From IMG/VR virus record IMGVR_UViG_3300009538_000029, positions 1 to 43,189 of that record: a stretch of DNA of 43,189 nucleotides; one strand, given 5' to 3'. The stretch comes from a virus. Positions 488-11,799 of this stretch are shown here, piece by piece. Both the position numbers and the translations under genes were made by a program. The notes beneath the pieces are model-generated. The model did no database searches. It worked only from the letters and a program-made list of their open reading frames with translations, and was not told the DNA's origin. Position 1 is the first letter of the stretch. The number at the start of each line of letters is the position of its first letter.

Positions 488-526
488 AAAATAAAAAACC
501 GCCATCTCACAAACGCTAGGTGGCGG
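488..526 (-). terminator. Rho-independent terminator after the Cas4-like nuclease gene
   Basis: On the minus strand CCGCCACCT (526-518) pairs with AGATGGCGG (507-499), 9 bp with one G-U, around a 10-nt loop. The stem is followed directly by TTTTTTATTTT. It lies about 125 bp beyond the stop of the nuclease gene and would end the defence-island transcript before usp. Confidence 0.75.
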
Positions 527-546
527 CCCGACCACTAGAAAACTCC

Positions 547-565
547 TCCGGGCAACATGCCCGGA
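547..565. repeat. GC-rich hairpin in the intergenic region
   Basis: TCCGGGCA and TGCCCGGA form a perfect 8-bp stem with a 3-nt loop (ACA). On the plus strand it is followed by CCCTTTT, a weak U-tract. It may be part of a bidirectional termination region together with 488-526. The remainder of 373-650 shows no gene. Confidence 0.4.
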
Positions 566-650
566 CCCTTTTCAGAACACTGAATTGTAGGTTCATCGTA
601 CCAGAAATGATGCGCGCAATCAATCAAAGCAACAACCCAGATTAGGACGC

Positions 651-1886: not shown

Positions 1887-3590
1887 TCACTCCACCCCTA
1901 GAAATTCATTCAGTCTTACGGCGATCCGTTCTCTTCGTTTTTGCAGAAATGCTTTGTAGTTAGCGGCCTCCAGCAGCGGTGGGTCTGTTGGAATGGACTG
2001 CGCCTCGAAGGCTTCCGGTCCCGCCTTTGGGATGAGCGTGGGGAAATAGACCACTGGAGCTTTATCGCTGATCTGCCGATTGGTCTTGCCTGAGATAAAG
2101 CAAAGGTTCGCGATGTCGTCGGCCTCTCGACCGGAATACGCCTCCTTCAGGATAGCCTTTGGGAAGATGTGATGGAATTGTAGTCGGTGTTGTGCTCCGG
2201 AATGGTCTAGGGCAATCGCCAACTTTGATCGCCAGTCTTTCGCTCCTGAGGCTCTGAAGGCGAGGAACATCATCTTAAAAAGAGCGCTTCGCTGATTTCG
2301 TCCCTCGAGTTCATCTGCTGTGATGTTCAGCCGACCGACCTGTTGGCGCAAGCGGTCTATCAGCTCCTGCGCGCCACCGTCGGCTTTCAAGGTGGCGAGG
2401 TCTTGATCGAGGAGCGTCTCGCTCGACCCACGCGAGTAGCGGCCCTTCGCGTTTGCAACGAGTACCCAGTACCGCAGGCGCTGCGACTCCTCAGGCGATA
2501 ATGAGTAGTCGCGCTTATGTCCGTGATAGGCAAGCGTGATCAGTAGGAACGGCGACGACAGCAGCGCTGGACTGTCAATGCCCGCGTTGTTCTTCAAGAA
2601 GTTCAACGCGAACTCCATCCCGCGGCAGCTCTCCTTCCACCCTGCCTGTAACGCCTCGAGCTGCAAGCCGCCGACGGTAAGAAAGCGCGACTGTCCGGTG
2701 GTAAAGACCACGAGGCTCTTGATGTACAACCCAAGGTCCAACTCGAAGCCGATCTTGCTGCATTGCTGCTGGAACGCCTCAAACGTTTTCAGTGAGTTGC
2801 GCCATTTGGCGGTGATCTGCGCGAGCGCCAAGTCAGAGCTGCGTAGCTTGGCGCCGAGCGAGTTCACGCGCACGAAGATCTCGGTGACCTCGTCATACGA
2901 GAGCTTCCGCTCAAGCACATCCATCCGGTAGACATACTTGCGGATGCCCCGCAGACGGGCCAACCGCTGGCTATACCGCTCATAGTTCGGATCATCAAAG
3001 CCGCTTACCCCGGCACGCCTCAGAAAGCTCGCATCGCTGTCGGTCTTGAATACCTCAGTCACCTTGACCCAGTGCGGCAGCTGTTCGAGCTTCCGCGTTG
3101 TCACCACAAAGGTCATGCGGTCGAAGCGCTTCTGCAGCTCGTCCTCGCTCGAATCTGCCTCGTCGTCGATCAGCTCGTCATCCTCATCTTCGTCATCGCC
3201 ATCCTCGGTCACTTCAGTCACAACGGTGAGCTGGTCGGGGTGATCGAGGTTAAATAGTAGTTCGACGGGCTTCTTGCGGCCGCGCACCTTGACCACCTCG
3301 CCGCGGATCACTGCTGAAAGCGAGGTGAGGCGCTGCTGCCCGTCGAGCAGGAGCCGCGTGCTCTGGTAGGGATTCGTCTGCTGGGTGACCGCCATGTCCT
3401 GCAATGGCACCTCCTCGTCGGTCTCCCAGAGCAGGATCGCACCAGAGGGGTAGCCACGATAGAGCGAGTCGAGCAGGTCGCGCACGCGGGTCGAGCGCCA
3501 GACGTAGCGGCGCTGCATCTCCGGCAGGCGCAGTTCGCCGCGCTCGATCATGCCGACTAGTTCTTCAACGGTGGCTTCAGCTTTGGCCAT
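1887..3590 (-). CDS. DUF262/DUF1524 protein, GmrSD-like restriction nuclease
   Basis: This 567-residue protein has an N-terminal DUF262 (ParB/Srx-like NTPase) domain. Its hallmark LPEMQRRYVW lies around residue 22 and DGQQR at residues 83-87. A C-terminal DUF1524 HNH domain begins HHIFPK at residue 473 and continues with NLCFISGKTNRQI to about residue 504. The same pair of domains makes up GmrS and GmrD, the type IV enzyme that cuts glucosylated hydroxymethylcytosine DNA. Here they form one chain, as in many GmrSD homologues. An unusual acidic run of Asp and Glu lies near residues 130-152. The ATG at 3590 is preceded by AAGGA about 10 nt upstream. The likely role is restriction of modified phage DNA; the modification recognised cannot be predicted. 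Confidence 0.8.
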   Translation of the reverse strand: MAKAEATVEELVGMIERGELRLPEMQRRYVWRSTRVRDLLDSLYRGYPSGAILLWETDEEVPLQDMAVTQQTNPYQSTRLLLDGQQRLTSLSAVIRGEVVKVRGRKKPVELLFNLDHPDQLTVVTEVTEDGDDEDEDDELIDDEADSSEDELQKRFDRMTFVVTTRKLEQLPHWVKVTEVFKTDSDASFLRRAGVSGFDDPNYERYSQRLARLRGIRKYVYRMDVLERKLSYDEVTEIFVRVNSLGAKLRSSDLALAQITAKWRNSLKTFEAFQQQCSKIGFELDLGLYIKSLVVFTTGQSRFLTVGGLQLEALQAGWKESCRGMEFALNFLKNNAGIDSPALLSSPFLLITLAYHGHKRDYSLSPEESQRLRYWVLVANAKGRYSRGSSETLLDQDLATLKADGGAQELIDRLRQQVGRLNITADELEGRNQRSALFKMMFLAFRASGAKDWRSKLAIALDHSGAQHRLQFHHIFPKAILKEAYSGREADDIANLCFISGKTNRQISDKAPVVYFPTLIPKAGPEAFEAQSIPTDPPLLEAANYKAFLQKRRERIAVRLNEFLGVE

Positions 3591-3758: not shown

Positions 3759-4625
3759 TTAAGCGGCCACTTTCCAAAGAATATGGTTCTTCTGAAAGCA
3801 CTGCGACCATTCCTTCGCCTTCTTCAAATGACCCATAGCTTTTATCACGTTTTTCTGTAACACAATCTTGAGAACTCTGGAAAAAACCAACCAGAGCATT
3901 AGTTGGAATTTTAGTGCATTTCGCACTGCCCACTCATATTCCTTGCTGCCTTTTTTCCCTTCGTCCTTATAGCTACAAGCGAAGCCACCAAACCTACTAA
4001 AGCCGCTCAGCGTGGTCTGTGATGAGACTGGGTCCGAATGGGTAAATGAACTATATTCGTGGACGAGGATCTCATAATGAGACAATAGCCCAACTGCTTC
4101 GCAGCGCCTTCTCAATGACAAGCCAGACCAGTGTTTGGTGCTGCCCTGTTTGTAACGACGACGAAGACTTTCGCCTTCCTGAACTACTTCATGATACTTC
4201 TTCATTCGAACGCTGTCCGCATCCCTTGGGAAATCCGAGTGCTTTTTGATTGCAAGGAAGAGGTCAGCTCGATGAATCATCCAGAACATTACATAACGTC
4301 GAACCCTCGCGCGTGGGGCTTTAGAGATGTATAGAGCATCTACCAAACGCTCGAATAAACTTCTAACTAAGATGATTGCTGCCGCCAAGTGACCGACCCT
4401 GAATAATGGAAGAATAGCGTCGTACAATCTCAAGCTGTCTGCAAAGAGCAGAGTCATACATCGCTCATATGGACTATCTGATTTGACATAGATTTTTTCG
4501 TCGCGCAGCATATGATGCCCTTTGAGGTCAGCTTCGATCTCTCGCAATAAGCTGTGCGCCTCACGGTACAATCCTTGGTTGTACCTGGCTTGCTTTTCAG
4601 CATCGGCACGTGCGTCAGTCCACAT
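3759..4625 (-). CDS. DUF5677-like protein, function unknown
   Basis: This 288-residue basic protein resembles the DUF5677 group. It has a helical core around residues 60-110 containing AAAIILVRSLFERLVDALYI, a later YSSFTHSDP motif near residue 190, and a long hydrophobic helix near residues 240-260 (LKFQLMLWLVFSRVLKIVL). Proteins of this group are often found among mobile and defence genes, but no activity is established to my knowledge. The DNA is clearly AT-richer than the phage region (3841-3900 has 21 G+C of 60), which suggests separate acquisition. The 81-bp gap to the upstream gene holds no obvious promoter. Family assignment is by recall of the pattern only. Confidence 0.55.
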   Translation of the reverse strand: MWTDARADAEKQARYNQGLYREAHSLLREIEADLKGHHMLRDEKIYVKSDSPYERCMTLLFADSLRLYDAILPLFRVGHLAAAIILVRSLFERLVDALYISKAPRARVRRYVMFWMIHRADLFLAIKKHSDFPRDADSVRMKKYHEVVQEGESLRRRYKQGSTKHWSGLSLRRRCEAVGLLSHYEILVHEYSSFTHSDPVSSQTTLSGFSRFGGFACSYKDEGKKGSKEYEWAVRNALKFQLMLWLVFSRVLKIVLQKNVIKAMGHLKKAKEWSQCFQKNHILWKVAA

Positions 4626-4706: not shown

Positions 4707-6581
4707 CTATCTAGCCGCTCTGAAATCGAGAAGATAGGACAGTGCGTTTTGTCGCCTGATTTCTTTGCTTTCCCTACGGTAGTCAAGCACTGGAGGAACT
4801 ACCAGTGGGGCAGCCACGGCACAGCCTTTTACGAAAAGTTCGAACCAGGACAATCCGGTGAAGCAAGACAGGGCCAAGCCTGCGGAGGCTGCTTGCGACG
4901 CCCTCTTTACTGCTGTCTTGACGATTTCGCCGAACATCTTTTCCCAAATCCGTTTGCACTCTACCTGGAACTGTAATGCTTCGGGGATGACCTCCTGTGC
5001 GATGATCCTATCCAATTCATCTTTTAGCGACGGGTTCCAAGCTTCGGCCTGAAGGCGCGAGTCGATCTTCAGCAAATATGCCCTGAAATTGTTGTAGCTA
5101 TCGCGGGTCGCATGACGGTATGAAATCACGTCCTTAAACGACGCCGCCTCAAGAAGATGATCCGGGACAATCGACTGAAACAGCCTGAATGAGATAAACG
5201 ATAATCGGGCTGAACGCCCTGTTTCTTTTGCCGCTTCACGGTCAGCGATCCTCTGAGTTCGGAGCGCCACCAATCTCTCGAATGTCGGGTGTTCGGTGAA
5301 AGGTATCAGAGAATATTGATGGGCAAGGATACAACCCAGACTCACATGGACTGAAGCGCCAGTAAGAAGCTGCACAAACGTTTGTTCCAGACTGACCGCG
5401 CTCCTCGGATCAAAAGGTTTGACCGTGCATTTCTTGTATTTGGCTAAGTCGTAGGGCTTGCCGCCTAGATCGAGCTTCATCAAGGCATCGCTGATTTCTT
5501 GGCCTTTGCCTTCAACATAATCCGACTCGTCATGGATGAATAGATTTCGGAACTCCGAGTCTTGAAGACCCTGAAAGAACAACAATGAGAATTGCGGGTC
5601 TTCAAGATCAGCAGCAACCGATTGTTCAAGAATATCTCCGCCAAACCAGGCCGAAGCAGGGTCATGAACCAGCACTGGGACGCCCTCTCTTGCAAACCCG
5701 TAGGCGTACCTTCTCACTCGAGACGCCGAGCCAATACCGCCCCAATCACCAAAAAAGTAGCCTGGTCGATCATGAAAATGGAGATCATCAAATAGAAGCA
5801 TGGCCCGTTTTATTGCGAGGGGAGAACAAATATCGTTCCCATAGAAAAGCACCCGCAATTTCTGTTTGAGTTTATCGTCCTGCGGATTTCCCGCGACCCC
5901 GTATCCGAACTTAATGCCGATAAGGGCCATCTGTGGATCGCGGATTCCAAGATGCTCCCGGGCGATGTCTGTGATGATTCCATCAACAAGACTTTCCGGG
6001 ATAAGTTCTTTGAAAAGCGACTCGACTTCATTCCCTTGATCATTGACGAGACGTGCATGGTAGACAATCAGCAAGGTCTTCAGCGGACTTCCAAAGAACG
6101 CCCCGTTCGTCTGGAAGTGGCTCTCTTGCCCCCAGATTTCCGGCGTCGTCTGGACACTGGCCGGGATAATTGCAATGAGTATGTCCTTCTGATCAAATCC
6201 GGGGTATCGTAGCGAATCGCCGTTGGCCACCGGCTTCGTAGTGGTGAACAGCTCTAATCGCCACCGAATCGGCGAGTCAACCGATAGCCAGCCATCCATT
6301 GCGTTGTACCTTGACTGCTTAGGAGGGATGACGTTCTCGATCAGGTGCTTTGAAAACTGGGTAAGACTTTCGTCAAATAGTGTCCGAACGCCGCAGTGCC
6401 GGAACAATTCGTATTCATCCATCAACTTAGCGATGTTGCGGCACAGGTCGAGATAGCGACCAGGCTCAGGCAAGCCGTTATAGACTATCGGGATGATCCG
6501 TATGGTTGGGGGAGAAGAAGCTTTCTGTTTCACGGGATTTGGGAATCCCGGGGACACATTACCTAACCCGGCTGTTTTCAT
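4707..6581 (-). CDS. Unrecognised 624-residue protein in defence island
   Basis: I do not recognise this protein. It is mostly soluble, with alternating hydrophobic strands (for example TIRIIPIVYNGLPEP near residue 30 and KTLLIVYHARLV near residue 170). A glycine- and aspartate-rich stretch near residues 270-290 reads YFFGDWGGIGSASRVRRY. A hydrophobic, possibly membrane-associated segment lies near residues 560-600 (FELFVKGCAVAAPLVVPPVL). No Walker, nuclease or methyltransferase motif is evident. It starts 51 bp after the helicase gene and reads the same way, so it may be an accessory part of that operon. The DNA is AT-rich (5581-5640 has 26 G+C of 60). No clear Shine-Dalgarno precedes the ATG at 6581, so the start is uncertain. 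Confidence 0.6.
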   Translation of the reverse strand: MKTAGLGNVSPGFPNPVKQKASSPPTIRIIPIVYNGLPEPGRYLDLCRNIAKLMDEYELFRHCGVRTLFDESLTQFSKHLIENVIPPKQSRYNAMDGWLSVDSPIRWRLELFTTTKPVANGDSLRYPGFDQKDILIAIIPASVQTTPEIWGQESHFQTNGAFFGSPLKTLLIVYHARLVNDQGNEVESLFKELIPESLVDGIITDIAREHLGIRDPQMALIGIKFGYGVAGNPQDDKLKQKLRVLFYGNDICSPLAIKRAMLLFDDLHFHDRPGYFFGDWGGIGSASRVRRYAYGFAREGVPVLVHDPASAWFGGDILEQSVAADLEDPQFSLLFFQGLQDSEFRNLFIHDESDYVEGKGQEISDALMKLDLGGKPYDLAKYKKCTVKPFDPRSAVSLEQTFVQLLTGASVHVSLGCILAHQYSLIPFTEHPTFERLVALRTQRIADREAAKETGRSARLSFISFRLFQSIVPDHLLEAASFKDVISYRHATRDSYNNFRAYLLKIDSRLQAEAWNPSLKDELDRIIAQEVIPEALQFQVECKRIWEKMFGEIVKTAVKRASQAASAGLALSCFTGLSWFELFVKGCAVAAPLVVPPVLDYRRESKEIRRQNALSYLLDFRAAR

Positions 6582-6632: not shown

Positions 6633-9170
6633 TCACTCCCTTGCCACCACGGTGCTATATAGCCCGTAGTGGGCCAGACCCTCGTGGCTATCGATTCCCG
6701 TGTAGCGAAGCGAGGCGTCTTCGTAACGTCGGAAGTAGAAAACAGCTTGATCCATCTGCTCGGTATTGAAAACCTTTAACTGTACGAGCAGGTGGAAATC
6801 CTTCACCGTCAGACCGGTAACAGCGAGAAACAGGTCCGGCTCGAGCCTCGTAATGACATCCTGGAGCGTGTTCTCGCGGAAATCGGTCAGGTACATAAAC
6901 GCGGGGATACGAGTGGCGAACTTGATCAGCTTCTCCTGGACGAGCTTCCGCTTGGACTTGTATTCCTTCTCCTCCTCAGTGAGCTGCTTCTTCTCTTTCG
7001 CTGTCAGGTCGCCGTCCTTGGCTTTTTTCTTGAGTTCCTTAACCTTGTCGCTCTTGTTGATGATGGTCTCGATAATGTTGTCACCAAGCGCGCGCCAGCC
7101 TTCAATGCGCTCCACTGCAGCCATTGCTTCGGGATTTTCCAAGATGCGGCGCAGGGTGTCGTTGTCAACGTTCACGAGCAGCGCGGACTCCCATTTTCGA
7201 GCTAGGAGCGTGGCTGAAGTGCCGGCCATCGCGATATCGAGAATCCCGCCTGCGTCAATTTGCGTCATATTGGCGCCGTCATAGGCAAGCACGGGCAGGA
7301 AGGACACCAGATCCTTGACGGCATTCTCAGGGTTCGACTCGCTTGGTGAAAGTCGAATCCCGTACTCGGACAGCTGGCGCAGCGCACGGGTAGGTGCGAA
7401 GTCGAATACGAAGCAGACGGGCTTGAGGATCTCCTCTTCATTTGGGTTGTCACCGTTGGGGTTCTTGATGGACCACGGTGACTGCACCCGGAACGCGGCC
7501 TGGAAGTAGGTTTCGGGCGACTTTAGGTTTCGAAGCATCAGGATCGAGGACCATTGCGGTACAGTCACGCCGGTCGTGAGCTTGCCACACGAAAGCGTGA
7601 TCGTCTTCGTCTCGAATCCGCTGCCGATAGCTGAACGCACGGGCGGCAACGCATCGACCCCGATGCCCGCCGATGCACCGGCCGCGACAACCACCTTATA
7701 GTCGCGCCAGAACGAGTTGTGCTTCTCAGCCAGCAAGTTCGCCATCGCGCGACACGCGGCAACGTTTGGCAAGAACCAAAATGAGTGCTGAAGGTACGGC
7801 AACAGGCGGACATCCGAGTATGGAAACGGCGGCCGCGTTCCGGTCTTGAGACTCTCGATCGCTTGCGGTGTGTACGAGCCCCGGATGATGTCCAACCACT
7901 TTTGCACATCGTCCTTGTGCTTGAACTGCGCATCCTTGCCTTTGCCAGAGGCCGCGAAGAACTCGTTAAGGTCGAACTCATCGAACTCCCCAGCATTCGC
8001 AATCGCTAGGAGCTCGTCCGGCATTTGATAGGTCAGCAGCCGCATCTGTGGTAGCGCGCCATAGGGATTCCATTTGCCAGGATTCCTAGCGGCGAACTCT
8101 TCTTTGGTGCGCTGCTCGTCGGTATACGTCCAGTTGAAGATCTGCTCCTCGATAAACTCGCCCGTAGCCAGCGCCTTGAATGGCGTGCCGGACAGGTAGA
8201 GATACGCCTTGGTCGTGATTGGAAGGAACTCTGCCTCCTTCTCCGAGAGCACGCCCAGGTCTTCGTTTACCACCTCCAGGCCGGCGGCGTATTCAAGCCC
8301 GCTCTCTTTCTTGGCGACCGCCTCCTCCTCCCCTTCAAACAGCTCTTTCGCGGTCTCCCGCCACGCGCCGAAGTGGTATTCGTCAAAGACCACGAGATCC
8401 CAGTTCACCTTATGGATCCATTCGTTCTTGGGCTTAATATTCCCCGACTCATCACGGCCGAGGAGGTCCTGAAAAGAGCCGAAATAGACCACCGGCTTCT
8501 TGCGGTCAATCTTGGTGGGATCCTTTTCGGAGTGGCGGGATAGATACTGCCAGCCGTCGAAATCCACATGAGACTCGAGGTCTGTCTGCCACGCATCCTC
8601 CACGGCGGGCTTGAAGGTCACCACAAGCACCCGCTTGGCCCCGAGCTTTTTGGCCAACTGGTAGGTTGTGAAGGTCTTGCCGAAGCGCATCTTCGCGTTC
8701 CAGAGGAAGCGAGGAACGGCGTGCATATTCTCCTTCCAAATCGAGTGGAAGTAGGCGTGCGTCTTGTTTACGGCCTCGGCTTGTTCCCAACGCATAGGGA
8801 ACGTCTCGTGATGGGTGCCGGTGAAGTGCTGGCCCGTTCGAAGTTCCGTGAGCACGGTCCGGACATCGGCCACTGAGCACTGCATCCATTCCAACTTACC
8901 ATTCGCGAATCCCTTCTTCCCGAGCGCAACGCGGACTTGGTGATCGGAGAAAACAGCGCCGCCGTCACATTCGGCGGATTCGTCCAACTCAATCGTGTAG
9001 TTGCTGATGGCGGGGGTCTTGAGCTGTTCGGCGATGCGTTGCTTCACGTCGCGCGTCGTCTGCCCAATCTTAAGGAGTCCCTTGTGAGCCTTGTCGTCAA
9101 TCGAGTAGGCGTAGATGCGCGGGCGCGCCAACGGTTTAGGAGCAAGGATCTCCTCGATGGTCTTACTCAT
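6633..9170 (-). CDS. GIY-YIG-type nuclease fused to SF2 helicase (restriction subunit)
   Basis: The N-terminal 50 residues read RIYAYSIDD then GLLKIGQTTRDVKQRI, the pattern of the GIY-YIG superfamily (T5orf172/MUG113-like branch). A superfamily 2 motor follows: Walker A NAKMRFGKTFT at about 158-168, DEYH at 263-266, SGTP at 328-330, and C-terminal motifs LTTGVTVP and QAAFRVQSPW. The protein is 845 residues. The expected role is the ATP-dependent translocase and nuclease of a restriction-modification system whose methyltransferase is encoded just upstream. It overlaps that gene by 8 bp, with AAGGAGG just before its ATG. A Lys- and Glu-rich region near residues 725-755 is probably a coiled coil. 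The helicase call is firm; the GIY-YIG call rests on a short motif. Confidence 0.8.
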   Translation of the reverse strand: MSKTIEEILAPKPLARPRIYAYSIDDKAHKGLLKIGQTTRDVKQRIAEQLKTPAISNYTIELDESAECDGGAVFSDHQVRVALGKKGFANGKLEWMQCSVADVRTVLTELRTGQHFTGTHHETFPMRWEQAEAVNKTHAYFHSIWKENMHAVPRFLWNAKMRFGKTFTTYQLAKKLGAKRVLVVTFKPAVEDAWQTDLESHVDFDGWQYLSRHSEKDPTKIDRKKPVVYFGSFQDLLGRDESGNIKPKNEWIHKVNWDLVVFDEYHFGAWRETAKELFEGEEEAVAKKESGLEYAAGLEVVNEDLGVLSEKEAEFLPITTKAYLYLSGTPFKALATGEFIEEQIFNWTYTDEQRTKEEFAARNPGKWNPYGALPQMRLLTYQMPDELLAIANAGEFDEFDLNEFFAASGKGKDAQFKHKDDVQKWLDIIRGSYTPQAIESLKTGTRPPFPYSDVRLLPYLQHSFWFLPNVAACRAMANLLAEKHNSFWRDYKVVVAAGASAGIGVDALPPVRSAIGSGFETKTITLSCGKLTTGVTVPQWSSILMLRNLKSPETYFQAAFRVQSPWSIKNPNGDNPNEEEILKPVCFVFDFAPTRALRQLSEYGIRLSPSESNPENAVKDLVSFLPVLAYDGANMTQIDAGGILDIAMAGTSATLLARKWESALLVNVDNDTLRRILENPEAMAAVERIEGWRALGDNIIETIINKSDKVKELKKKAKDGDLTAKEKKQLTEEEKEYKSKRKLVQEKLIKFATRIPAFMYLTDFRENTLQDVITRLEPDLFLAVTGLTVKDFHLLVQLKVFNTEQMDQAVFYFRRYEDASLRYTGIDSHEGLAHYGLYSTVVARE

Positions 9171-10734
9171 CGTCCTCCTTGCCGAGGCTCATCGCCCGCA
9201 CCTGAGACTCGATGTACGCCTGTTCCTCCGATATGATGCCGTACTTCTTGTAGAGGGCTTTGTCTGTCCACGGACAATCCCACGGCTGCAAAGGAACCCA
9301 TGTATATGTCGAGTGCGTCGCATCTTGCGTGATCTTGCGGAGGGACACGAGAAATCGAAAGAAACGTGTCGTGTAGTACGCCTGCAGGCTCTTGGCCTCA
9401 TCGTCGGAGTTGACGTAGAAGAAGAGGAAGGATTGGGTGCACACCGACGGAGATGGAGCAATCAACGGCTTGCCCACGATCTGGTGCGGCACGCCATCGC
9501 CCCCATTGAAGGCCTTGGGCACGAGAACCTTCCAGGTATCAATGAGGTGTGCGCTCTTGGTCACCTCTTTGCGTGCGATGTGGCCCACGTTGCGCTTCAT
9601 CGCGCGGATGTAATAGACGGGCAGGTCACCCGTCCGCTTCGTCTCGTGGAAACCGTCGAAGTTTGAAGTCCAGCCGAACTCCTTGTCTCGTGCGAGAATC
9701 GTGTTGATTGATGGCTCTCCGCGTTTGAGCACCTTGTGCAGAATCGATATCGCACGCGCATCGCGGACGAACACATCGTATTCGCCAAGATTCCGAGGCA
9801 CTGGTCCTAACACCTCGCCACTGCGGACCGTCGTCACTTTGCAGTCGCCGTCATGAGACGCATCCCAAAGGAAGTAGCAGACGCCGGCTTTAACCTCGAC
9901 ACCAGGAAAGACGTCGTTCGCGGCTGGGTAGTCCACCAACTCACGCAACCGCCGGTCACTAAGCATCGACTGACGAAATTCAGTAAGCCCAAGACCTGAC
10001 GCCATCCACCGCGACGGAATGACCATTGTGAGGTATCGGGGCTCCAGCCGCTTCGCTTGCTCGACGAAGTGCTGGTAGATAGGCACGTCGCGCGTGCCGC
10101 CATCGGAGCCCAGTTGATACGGCGGATTTCCGATGATCACGTCGAATTGCATGTCTCCTCCGAACAACTTGGTGATATGTGTGGTGATGTCGTCGCTATG
10201 GATGAACGCATAGGCGTGCGACTCACGCTCCGTGCCCCGTTCATAGGTCGCCTTGCTCGCACCACAATACGTGCAGCTGCCGTGTGCCCACGTGTGCTCA
10301 GTCCGCTCGAACCAGATATTTCCATCGTCACTCTTGAACCTCTTCGCAATTGAGTGACTCCCCTTCGCGTGCTTGGAACAATACACGCTCCGGCGCGCAA
10401 GAAGGCTGGTGAGATTGGTGATGCCGATGCCAAACACTTGCTTGGTCAGGATGTGATTGACGCGATCTTCTAGATTCGGAATCCCATCTGCCAAGCCTTT
10501 CGTGAGGCGACTGGTGATCTCACGCAGGAACACGCCCGACTTGGTGCACGGGTCAAGGAACCTCACCGAACTGTCCGACCAGATGTTCGCACCGTCGTTC
10601 TTGGCCGCCCACGCCTCAGCGAGGGTGTCCAGCATCCTGTTGGCAAACTCGGGCGGCGTGAACACCTCATCGTTCGAGAGGTTCGCAATGCACGTCAACA
10701 CATCTGGATTGCGACCGCGCAGCGAGAAGGCCAC
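9163..10734 (-). CDS. N6-adenine DNA methyltransferase (Eco57I-like) with NPPY motif
   Basis: This 523-residue gamma-type methyltransferase has FTPPEFANRMLDTL near residue 25 and a variant SAM-binding motif I, FLDPCTKSGVFL, at 59-70. A zinc-ribbon-like insert carries cysteines and histidines between about 118 and 158 (VYCSKHAKG, HGSCTYCGAS). The catalytic NPPYQ is at 203-207. The second half, from about residue 330, is likely the target recognition domain and ends with KKYGIISEEQAYIESQV, typical of this group. The chosen start is GTG 8 bp after the stop of the upstream gene. In-frame codons extend a little further upstream (CTG AAC AAC), so initiation could be a few residues earlier. It probably sets the DNA specificity of the operon. 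Confidence 0.85.
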   Translation of the reverse strand: MAFSLRGRNPDVLTCIANLSNDEVFTPPEFANRMLDTLAEAWAAKNDGANIWSDSSVRFLDPCTKSGVFLREITSRLTKGLADGIPNLEDRVNHILTKQVFGIGITNLTSLLARRSVYCSKHAKGSHSIAKRFKSDDGNIWFERTEHTWAHGSCTYCGASKATYERGTERESHAYAFIHSDDITTHITKLFGGDMQFDVIIGNPPYQLGSDGGTRDVPIYQHFVEQAKRLEPRYLTMVIPSRWMASGLGLTEFRQSMLSDRRLRELVDYPAANDVFPGVEVKAGVCYFLWDASHDGDCKVTTVRSGEVLGPVPRNLGEYDVFVRDARAISILHKVLKRGEPSINTILARDKEFGWTSNFDGFHETKRTGDLPVYYIRAMKRNVGHIARKEVTKSAHLIDTWKVLVPKAFNGGDGVPHQIVGKPLIAPSPSVCTQSFLFFYVNSDDEAKSLQAYYTTRFFRFLVSLRKITQDATHSTYTWVPLQPWDCPWTDKALYKKYGIISEEQAYIESQVRAMSLGKEDDE

Positions 10735-10742
10735 CTGGTTGT

Positions 10743-11399
10743 TCAGACCGATTCCTTCGGCGCATCGCTGACTTCCGCGCCCGCAAGCTCGCTCACCGTC
10801 ATCGGCGGGTATGTCCTAGCCGGCGTGAAGATCTCGTGCCTGCCGAGGTGGGCAAAGAGCGTGCCCTCCTCAGTAAAGGCCGACATTTGGGTGAGGACGT
10901 CCAATCGAAAATCTCGACGCTGAAACTTCCCCTTACCGAGGTAGCCCCATTCGGCGAAGGTAATCGCCTGGCCACCGCTGGTGCGCATCATCAAGGCATC
11001 ACCATGCACGAGGTTCTGCGACAGCACGTAGGAAGCGGCTCGATAAAGGTCATCCGACTCTTCCAGATTCAGGTAGTCGGCAAGAATCTCCACCATATTC
11101 GAGCGGCAATTAGCGATGTTGTCCGCCAAGAGTTCGATCCCGTAAGTGCACATCAGAGCGAGAAGGGCGTAATGGCGCTTTTCAAAGTCAGACTTCCCGA
11201 ACTTGAGTTCGACAGCGGCGAGCTTGCGCTTCAGGATCTGAATAAGGAAGTTCCCGCTTCCGCACGCCGGCTCTAAGAAGCGGGAATCAATCCGCTCGGT
11301 CTCGCCCTTGACGAGATCGAGCATCGCTTCGACCATCCACTGCGGTGTGAACACCTCCCCGTGGTCTGCTACACGTTGTTTTGACTTGATCAGGCTCAT
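10743..11399 (-). CDS. Short methyltransferase-domain protein (first gene of RM operon)
   Basis: The 218-residue protein begins SLIKSKQRVADHGEVFTPQW and carries a canonical SAM-binding motif I, FLEPACGSGNFL, at 41-52. YGIELLADNIANCR follows near residue 85. It has no NPPY/NPPF catalytic motif and ends after about 170 further residues, so it is either a non-catalytic partner or works as a heteromer with the next gene, which has NPPY but a variant motif I. Comparable pairs next to a GIY-YIG helicase occur in other bacteria as I recall. The ATG at 11399 lacks a good Shine-Dalgarno (C-rich upstream). It leads the operon 11399-6633. Confidence 0.75.
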   Translation of the reverse strand: MSLIKSKQRVADHGEVFTPQWMVEAMLDLVKGETERIDSRFLEPACGSGNFLIQILKRKLAAVELKFGKSDFEKRHYALLALMCTYGIELLADNIANCRSNMVEILADYLNLEESDDLYRAASYVLSQNLVHGDALMMRTSGGQAITFAEWGYLGKGKFQRRDFRLDVLTQMSAFTEEGTLFAHLGRHEIFTPARTYPPMTVSELAGAEVSDAPKESV

Positions 11400-11724: not shown

Positions 11725-11733
11725 ATTATAACA
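11725..11733 (-). promoter_or_regulatory. Extended -10 promoter for the HTH gene
   Basis: On the minus strand TGTTATAAT is a perfect TGnTATAAT extended -10 element, with the expected transcription start near 11718 and a short leader of about 22 nt to the ATG. There is no good -35 hexamer, as is usual for extended -10 promoters. The neighbouring inverted repeat (11733-11772) occupies the -35 region. Confidence 0.6.
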
Positions 11734-11772
11734 ACGCAAACAGGAAAAGGACAGCATTTTCCTGTTTGCGTT
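11733..11772. repeat. Perfect 16-bp inverted repeat overlapping the HTH-gene promoter
   Basis: AACGCAAACAGGAAAA (11733-11748) is followed after an 8-base loop by its exact reverse complement at 11757-11772. It lies 28 bp beyond the stop of the metallopeptidase gene and immediately upstream of the -10 of the HTH gene. It could be an operator for a dimeric regulator, or an RNA hairpin ending the upstream transcript, although no U-tract follows. Confidence 0.7.
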
Positions 11773-11799
11773 GGGGTTGCGGAGGTATGTTGAACCCGA

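What the first reader, a model, noticed from the sequence alone, without database searches (positions are those of the whole stretch)
4707..6581. Unrecognised 624-residue protein placed after a restriction operon
It reads in the same direction 51 bp after the helicase gene, has no motif I can name, and lies in DNA of clearly lower G+C (26 of 60 at 5581-5640). Unknown large proteins embedded in restriction blocks are frequent sources of new antiphage systems. A hydrophobic segment near residues 560-600 suggests membrane association.
Basis: inference. Interest (0 to 1): 0.65.

Follow-up and report, generated by a model that had tools for sequence, protein, structure and literature searches.

The report
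Uncharacterised mobile cargo protein, likely antiphage
A real but unnamed 624-residue protein sits beside a common restriction system by chance rather than as part of it; its distant relatives ride on phages and mobile elements in places crowded with antiviral genes, so it is a fair but untested candidate for a new phage-defence gene.

Summary
The ORF is real and where stated. It matches no Pfam, PADLOC, NCBIfam or PHROG model above cut-off. The operon before it is a DrdVI-like restriction system; 0 of 108 such loci fetched carry a relative of the protein, and in the 87 with enough sequence the first downstream genes fall in 75 clusters. It is a neighbour, not a subunit. Residues 1-237 have no relative found. 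Residues 238-624 are a module found alone in one bacterial genome beside tRNA-Ser, in two near-identical phage contigs between terminase and portal, and as a wreck on an acidobacterial element beside known defence genes. The terminase-portal gap is a cargo slot: 58 of 71 comparable phage loci carry cargo, and about 13 of 38 cargo types belong to defence-linked families. The module's first 200 residues also match a chromosomal protein of Nitrospirota with ordinary neighbours (14 of 148 genomes), which counts against a purely defensive family. Best reading: mobile accessory gene, probably antiphage, mechanism unproven. Both structure models failed (pLDDT 36 and 31).

The parts
4707..6581 (-). 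The 624-residue protein of the finding (P0001)
5871..6581 (-). N-terminal part, residues 1-237: no relative found in anything searched; absent from the stand-alone relatives
5202..5870 (-). Core of the shared module, residues 238-460: aligns with P0008, P0009/L116 and the Nitrospirota proteins
5769..5780 (-). H268-F269-x-D271 motif; H268, F269, D271, G281, L437 and R444 are the only columns identical in all 16 sequences aligned
4707..5201 (-). C-terminal part, residues 461-624 plus stop: shared by the mobile members only, absent from Nitrospirota proteins; ends in a borderline hydrophobic stretch
6633..9170 (-). Upstream neighbour: helicase with GIY-YIG-type N-terminus of a DrdVI-like restriction system; not a functional part of P0001
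9163..10734 (-). Neighbour: Eco57I-type methyltransferase of the DrdVI-like system
10743..11399 (-). Neighbour: small N6-methyltransferase-like subunit of the DrdVI-like system
3759..4625 (-). Downstream neighbour: DUF5677 protein, 81 bp after P0001; no evidence of partnership
1887..3590 (-). Neighbour: GmrSD-like (DUF262) protein, best PADLOC match HEC-05

Best explanation
P0001 is a stand-alone accessory gene carried as cargo by mobile DNA, most likely protecting the cell (and so the resident element) from other phages. It is a fusion of an unmatched N-terminal part (residues 1-237) to a module of about 390 residues that elsewhere works as a whole protein. Proposed working, all inferred: the N-terminal part senses or binds an infection signal; the core with the invariant H-F-x-D motif acts or switches; the long helical tail with its hydrophobic end either oligomerises or touches the membrane; the outcome is abortive infection or exclusion rather than DNA cutting. 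Shown: the two-part build, the module family, its mobile and defence-rich contexts. Not shown: any activity. Probability of a phage-defence or exclusion role about 0.45; of the detailed mechanism as written about 0.1.
For: Module found in four separate mobile-looking settings: the window beside a restriction system and a GmrSD-like gene; phage contigs L115/L116 between terL and portal; genome G420, 131 bp after tRNA-Ser with housekeeping genes around; genome G1450 as a C-terminal wreck in two frames beside a dCTP-deaminase-type defence protein (PADLOC dCTPase E=3e-151) and a PDC-M30 pair. The terL-portal gap is a cargo slot in 71 of 80 related loci with both ends: 13 hold 49-131 bp, 58 hold 383-3439 bp; of 38 cargo types scanned about 13 belong to families linked to defence (AAA_21 in 4, RloB in 2, and one each of Abi_2, AbiV, TIR, AlbA_2, DndB, Schlafen-type helicase, PDC-S46). 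The gene is lower in G+C than its surroundings in three settings: 50.9 v 56.9-64.6, 45.6 v 54.4, 41.7 v 46-48%. Rare and patchy: 1 true hit in 398 Pseudomonadota genomes.
Against: Few members: L115 and L116 are one lineage (99% identical), so only four independent mobile cases, one of them a wreck and one (G420) with no defence gene nearby. A distant branch is chromosomal in 14 of 148 Nitrospirota genomes next to hemW-, chaA- or ychF-like genes (names by eye), which suggests a cellular role for the core. No defence model hits P0001, P0008 or P0009. About 25 of 38 cargo types in the slot have no family I count as defence. No structure (pLDDT 36 and 31).
Confidence: 0.45

Rival explanations
1. 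P0001 is a subunit of the DrdVI-like restriction system, such as its nuclease or specificity factor.
For: Same strand, 51 bp after the helicase gene.
Against: 0 of 108 DrdVI-like loci (20 viral, 8 plasmid, 80 genome contigs) carry a relative; first downstream genes in 87 loci fall in 75 clusters; the characterised pDrdVI plasmid has a KTSC-domain gene there.
Confidence: 0.02
2. The core is a cellular protein, as in Nitrospirota, that mobile elements picked up; the mobile copies alter host physiology or lysogeny and do not fight phages.
For: 14 of 148 Nitrospirota genomes have it with housekeeping-type neighbours; profile match 96.4% probability, E=1.3e-9, absent in 21 reversed or shuffled controls.
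Against: The mobile members share a C-terminal part the Nitrospirota proteins lack and sit in defence-rich places.
Confidence: 0.25
3. A phage moron that acts for the carrier phage in another way: superinfection exclusion at entry, anti-defence, or lysogenic conversion.
For: In L115/L116 the gene lies inside the late operon and reads the same way as terL and portal; other cargo in the slot is of unknown function.
Against: The window copy, G420 and G1450 copies are not inside a phage structural operon.
Confidence: 0.2
4. A transient passenger with no selected function in this record.
For: The G1450 copy is decayed and the L116 copy has a frame slip in its record.
Against: The window ORF is intact over 624 codons and keeps the residues conserved in the family.
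Confidence: 0.08

Closest known systems
Prophage and satellite defence hotspots (Rousset et al. 2022, PMC9122126; passages read)
   Same: Small variable slot of 1-5 kb between two conserved phage genes, filled with turnover of defence genes; the L115/L116 member sits in such a slot.
   Different: Those hotspots lie by cos in P2/P4-like elements; here the slot lies between terL and portal of another phage group, and none of its cargo has been tested.
DrdVI restriction system of Deinococcus wulumuqiensis 479 (PMC6430315, whole text read)
   Same: The three genes upstream of P0001 match pDrdVI: helicase 76%, large methyltransferase 55%, small one 71% identity.
   Different: pDrdVI has no P0001 relative; P0001 is not part of it.
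Unnamed chromosomal Nitrospirota protein of about 220-235 aa (14 of 148 genomes)
   Same: Aligns with the core of P0001 over 198 columns, shares H-F-x-D.
   Different: Lacks the N-terminal part and the C-terminal 160 residues; chromosomal, with housekeeping-type neighbours.

Membership tests
DrdVI-like restriction-modification system | Gene recurs with the two methyltransferase genes and the helicase gene | tested here: not met
   0 of 108 loci; 75 clusters in 87 downstream positions
Any named family in Pfam, PADLOC, NCBIfam or PHROGs | Profile match above cut-off or at E<=0.001 | tested here: not met
   for P0001; for relatives (best weak listing for P0008: NF008478, E=0.0032, 16.5 bits against a cut-off of 520)
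Module family of P0008 and P0009 | Full-length alignment of residues 238-624 with a significant E-value | tested here: met
   tblastn 1.4e-33, 3.0e-34 and 4.9e-34; alignment
Antiphage defence gene carried in a mobile hotspot | Lies in a variable slot or island with known defence genes | tested here: met
   Relatives. One of four independent settings (G420) shows no defence neighbour
Antiphage defence gene carried in a mobile hotspot | Confers phage resistance | not testable with these tools
   Needs a plaque assay
Membrane protein | Clear transmembrane segment | tested here: inconclusive
   Best 19-residue hydropathy means 1.65 and 1.61 in P0001, 1.28 in P0008

The most novel reading that the evidence does not exclude
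The module defines an undescribed single-gene antiviral effector family: a compact core with an invariant H-F-x-D motif plus a helical tail, used alone in phages and on tRNA-linked sites, fused in the window to a separate sensing part, and descended from or parallel to a chromosomal Nitrospirota protein that may itself be an immune factor.
Probability: 0.2. Interest if true: 0.6.

Novelty: new member of a known kind. Interest (0 to 1): 0.4.

Why it matters
If true it adds one unmodelled protein family to the cargo of phage defence hotspots, points to a little-noticed terL-portal slot rich in defence-type genes, and gives a clean test: the stand-alone P0008 and P0009 versions can be assayed without the rest of the locus.

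Tried and rejected
Rejected: restriction subunit. Rejected as chance: G331 match in CTP synthase DNA read backwards; G1183 and G1089 short matches at E about 0.004-0.01 inside long frames, not examined further; G1355:C9 row with an in-frame stop; L246 and L247 matches at E about 0.02. Genome-contig and viral-contig scans with P0001 alone found nothing; plasmid and phage tblastn with P0001 and P0008, and plasmid tblastn with the N-terminal part, found nothing; no solved structure resembles the N-terminal part or the module: the only listings are chance-level, best E=0.27. Nitrospirota proteins were not found in viral contigs. AlphaFold with three-row alignments gave pLDDT 35.8 and 30.9; no fold search was run on them. 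A weak impression that part of the N-terminus recalls an Argonaute MID segment is recalled only and was not tested. Origin of the window's left end is unsettled: a nhaA-I riboswitch above cut-off at 518-568 and a fragment at 1-372 that reads to me as universal-stress-protein-like but has only E=0.035 support among chance-level hits suggest bacterial chromosome; related phage records stop at or before window 11802 because their contig ends there or an unrelated transposase-like gene begins. PADLOC and Pfam scans of the 38 cargo types report counts per family, not per protein; my count of 13 assumes each counted family falls on a different protein, which the lengths and sequences suggest but the tool did not print. 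Rows dropped: 11 of 14 Nitrospirota proteins went into A4 (L138, L140, L141 left out, shown to carry the motif); 12 Nitrospirota and 4 mobile sequences. The 38 cargo types are cluster representatives of at least 138 aa from loci with both slot ends; the L181, L174, L170-group and L172 short clusters, two short L215 clusters and the L165 copy of the family itself were left out. In one search the loci of 50 of the 80 genome contigs were given (49 genomes searched).

Full report
What is there. The window is an IMG/VR virus record of 43,189 bases. About 12-43 kb is a tailed phage: terminase, major head protein and tape measure match PHROGs, and a second record matches it at 87-93% over most of window 11,802-39,038. 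The first 11.4 kb has lower G+C, 55.5% against 64.6%, and carries seven genes on the minus strand: two methyltransferases and a helicase, P0001, a DUF5677 gene, a GmrSD-like gene and a PD-(D/E)XK nuclease. Whether this block belongs to the phage or to flanking host DNA is not settled.

The neighbour. The helicase and methyltransferases match the DrdVI system of Deinococcus wulumuqiensis 479 at 76, 55 and 71% identity, a system assigned GCAGCC by cloning and methylome analysis (whole paper read). Close copies occur in many phyla (594 stretches matched, 585 confirmed, the best 80 kept). None of the 108 loci I held (20 viral, 8 plasmid, 80 genome contigs) has a relative of P0001. In the 87 with at least 1.5 kb beyond the helicase, the first downstream ORFs fall in 75 clusters.

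The family. P0001 has no profile hit above cut-off. Searching it against 398 genomes of the phylum of Bradyrhizobium cytisi gave two rows: one real match (G420, E=1.4e-33, residues 236-619) and one spurious. A motif pattern then found two viral contigs with further members, 26-27% identical to P0001 and about 45% to P0008. In G420 the 386-aa protein stands alone 131 bp after tRNA-Ser. In the viral contigs the gene lies between terL and, where the contig reaches it, portal. In the phylum of an Acidobacteria record, 1 of 149 genomes has a decayed C-terminal copy, 53% identical to P0008 over 73 residues, on a stretch with an integrase-like gene, a tRNA-Val and genes that match PADLOC dCTPase and PDC-M30 models. 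Searches with the two- and four-row profiles gave 0 of 246 in the phylum of an Aeromicrobium record, 1 of 33 in G420's order, which is G420 itself, 0 of 274 in the class of a Thiocystis record, and 3 of 289 in G420's class, of which only G420 is convincing. Several of these draws overlap.

A distant branch. In the phylum of a Nitrospira record the four-row profile matched 14 of 148 genomes. These proteins of about 220-235 aa align with the module's first 200 residues: hhalign probability 96.4%, E=1.3e-9; one reversed and 20 shuffled controls gave at most 1.4% and E 0.037 or worse. Neighbours look like hemW, chaA or ychF (by eye). In a joint alignment of 16 sequences only H268, F269, D271, G281, L437 and R444 are identical throughout. 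D265 is kept in all four mobile members but not in Nitrospirota.

The slot. I fetched 80 phage loci with a terminase like that of L115 (263 relatives found, best 80 kept). In 71 both terL and portal are present: 13 have 49-131 bp between them and 58 have 383-3,439 bp. The cargo falls in many unrelated clusters on both strands. Of 38 representatives, Pfam counts AAA_21 in 4, RloB in 2 and Abi_2, AbiV, TIR, AlbA_2, DndB and a Schlafen-type helicase in 1 each; PADLOC matches the largest to PDC-S46 and others to AriA, AbiLi, Old and GajA models. The tool reports counts, not assignments, so 13 of 38 is my reading. This resembles the hotspots described by Rousset et al. (PMC9122126, passages read). 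I did not find this terL-portal slot described in the two searches I made, which cover only an open-licence library.

How it may work. Two-part build, mobile settings and defence company favour a stand-alone antiphage or exclusion protein. The invariant H-F-x-D could be catalytic or structural. The tail is predicted helical, but in models too poor to trust. The hydrophobic end is borderline. I commit to abortive infection or exclusion as the likeliest outcome, at about 0.45 for the role and about 0.1 for the detailed mechanism.

Against it. Four independent mobile cases is a small number. One has no defence gene near it, one is a wreck. The chromosomal Nitrospirota branch argues that the core began as, or still is, a cellular protein. 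Most cargo types in the slot have no family that I count as defence. No activity has been shown for any member.

Noticed in passing
L115, L165-L243, gap between terL and portal: A hypervariable cargo slot in a large group of related phages, 49 to 3,439 bp, with AAA/RloB, TIR, Abi_2, AbiV, DndB, Schlafen-type and many unnamed genes.
   Followed up: partly
window 6633-11399: DrdVI-like restriction system whose helicase is 80-90% identical across many phyla while the large methyltransferase is often only 40-70% identical, as if specificity changes around a constant motor.
   Followed up: partly
window 518-568, minus strand: nhaA-I riboswitch, 44.8 bits against a cut-off of 37; this class is reported to sense lithium (PMC9646797, search listing only).
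   Followed up: no
window 11732-11773: Perfect 17-bp inverted repeat with an 8-base loop between the restriction block and the phage genes, possibly a terminator.
   Followed up: no
L153 9897-17032: Acidobacterial element cargo with an NB-ARC-like ATPase (by eye), a TcmP-like and DUF5131-like pair, and a dCTP-deaminase-type defence gene.
   Followed up: partly
Nitrospirota loci L128-L141, L244: Conserved chromosomal protein of about 220-235 aa without any family model in Pfam, PADLOC or NCBIfam for those tested.
   Followed up: partly
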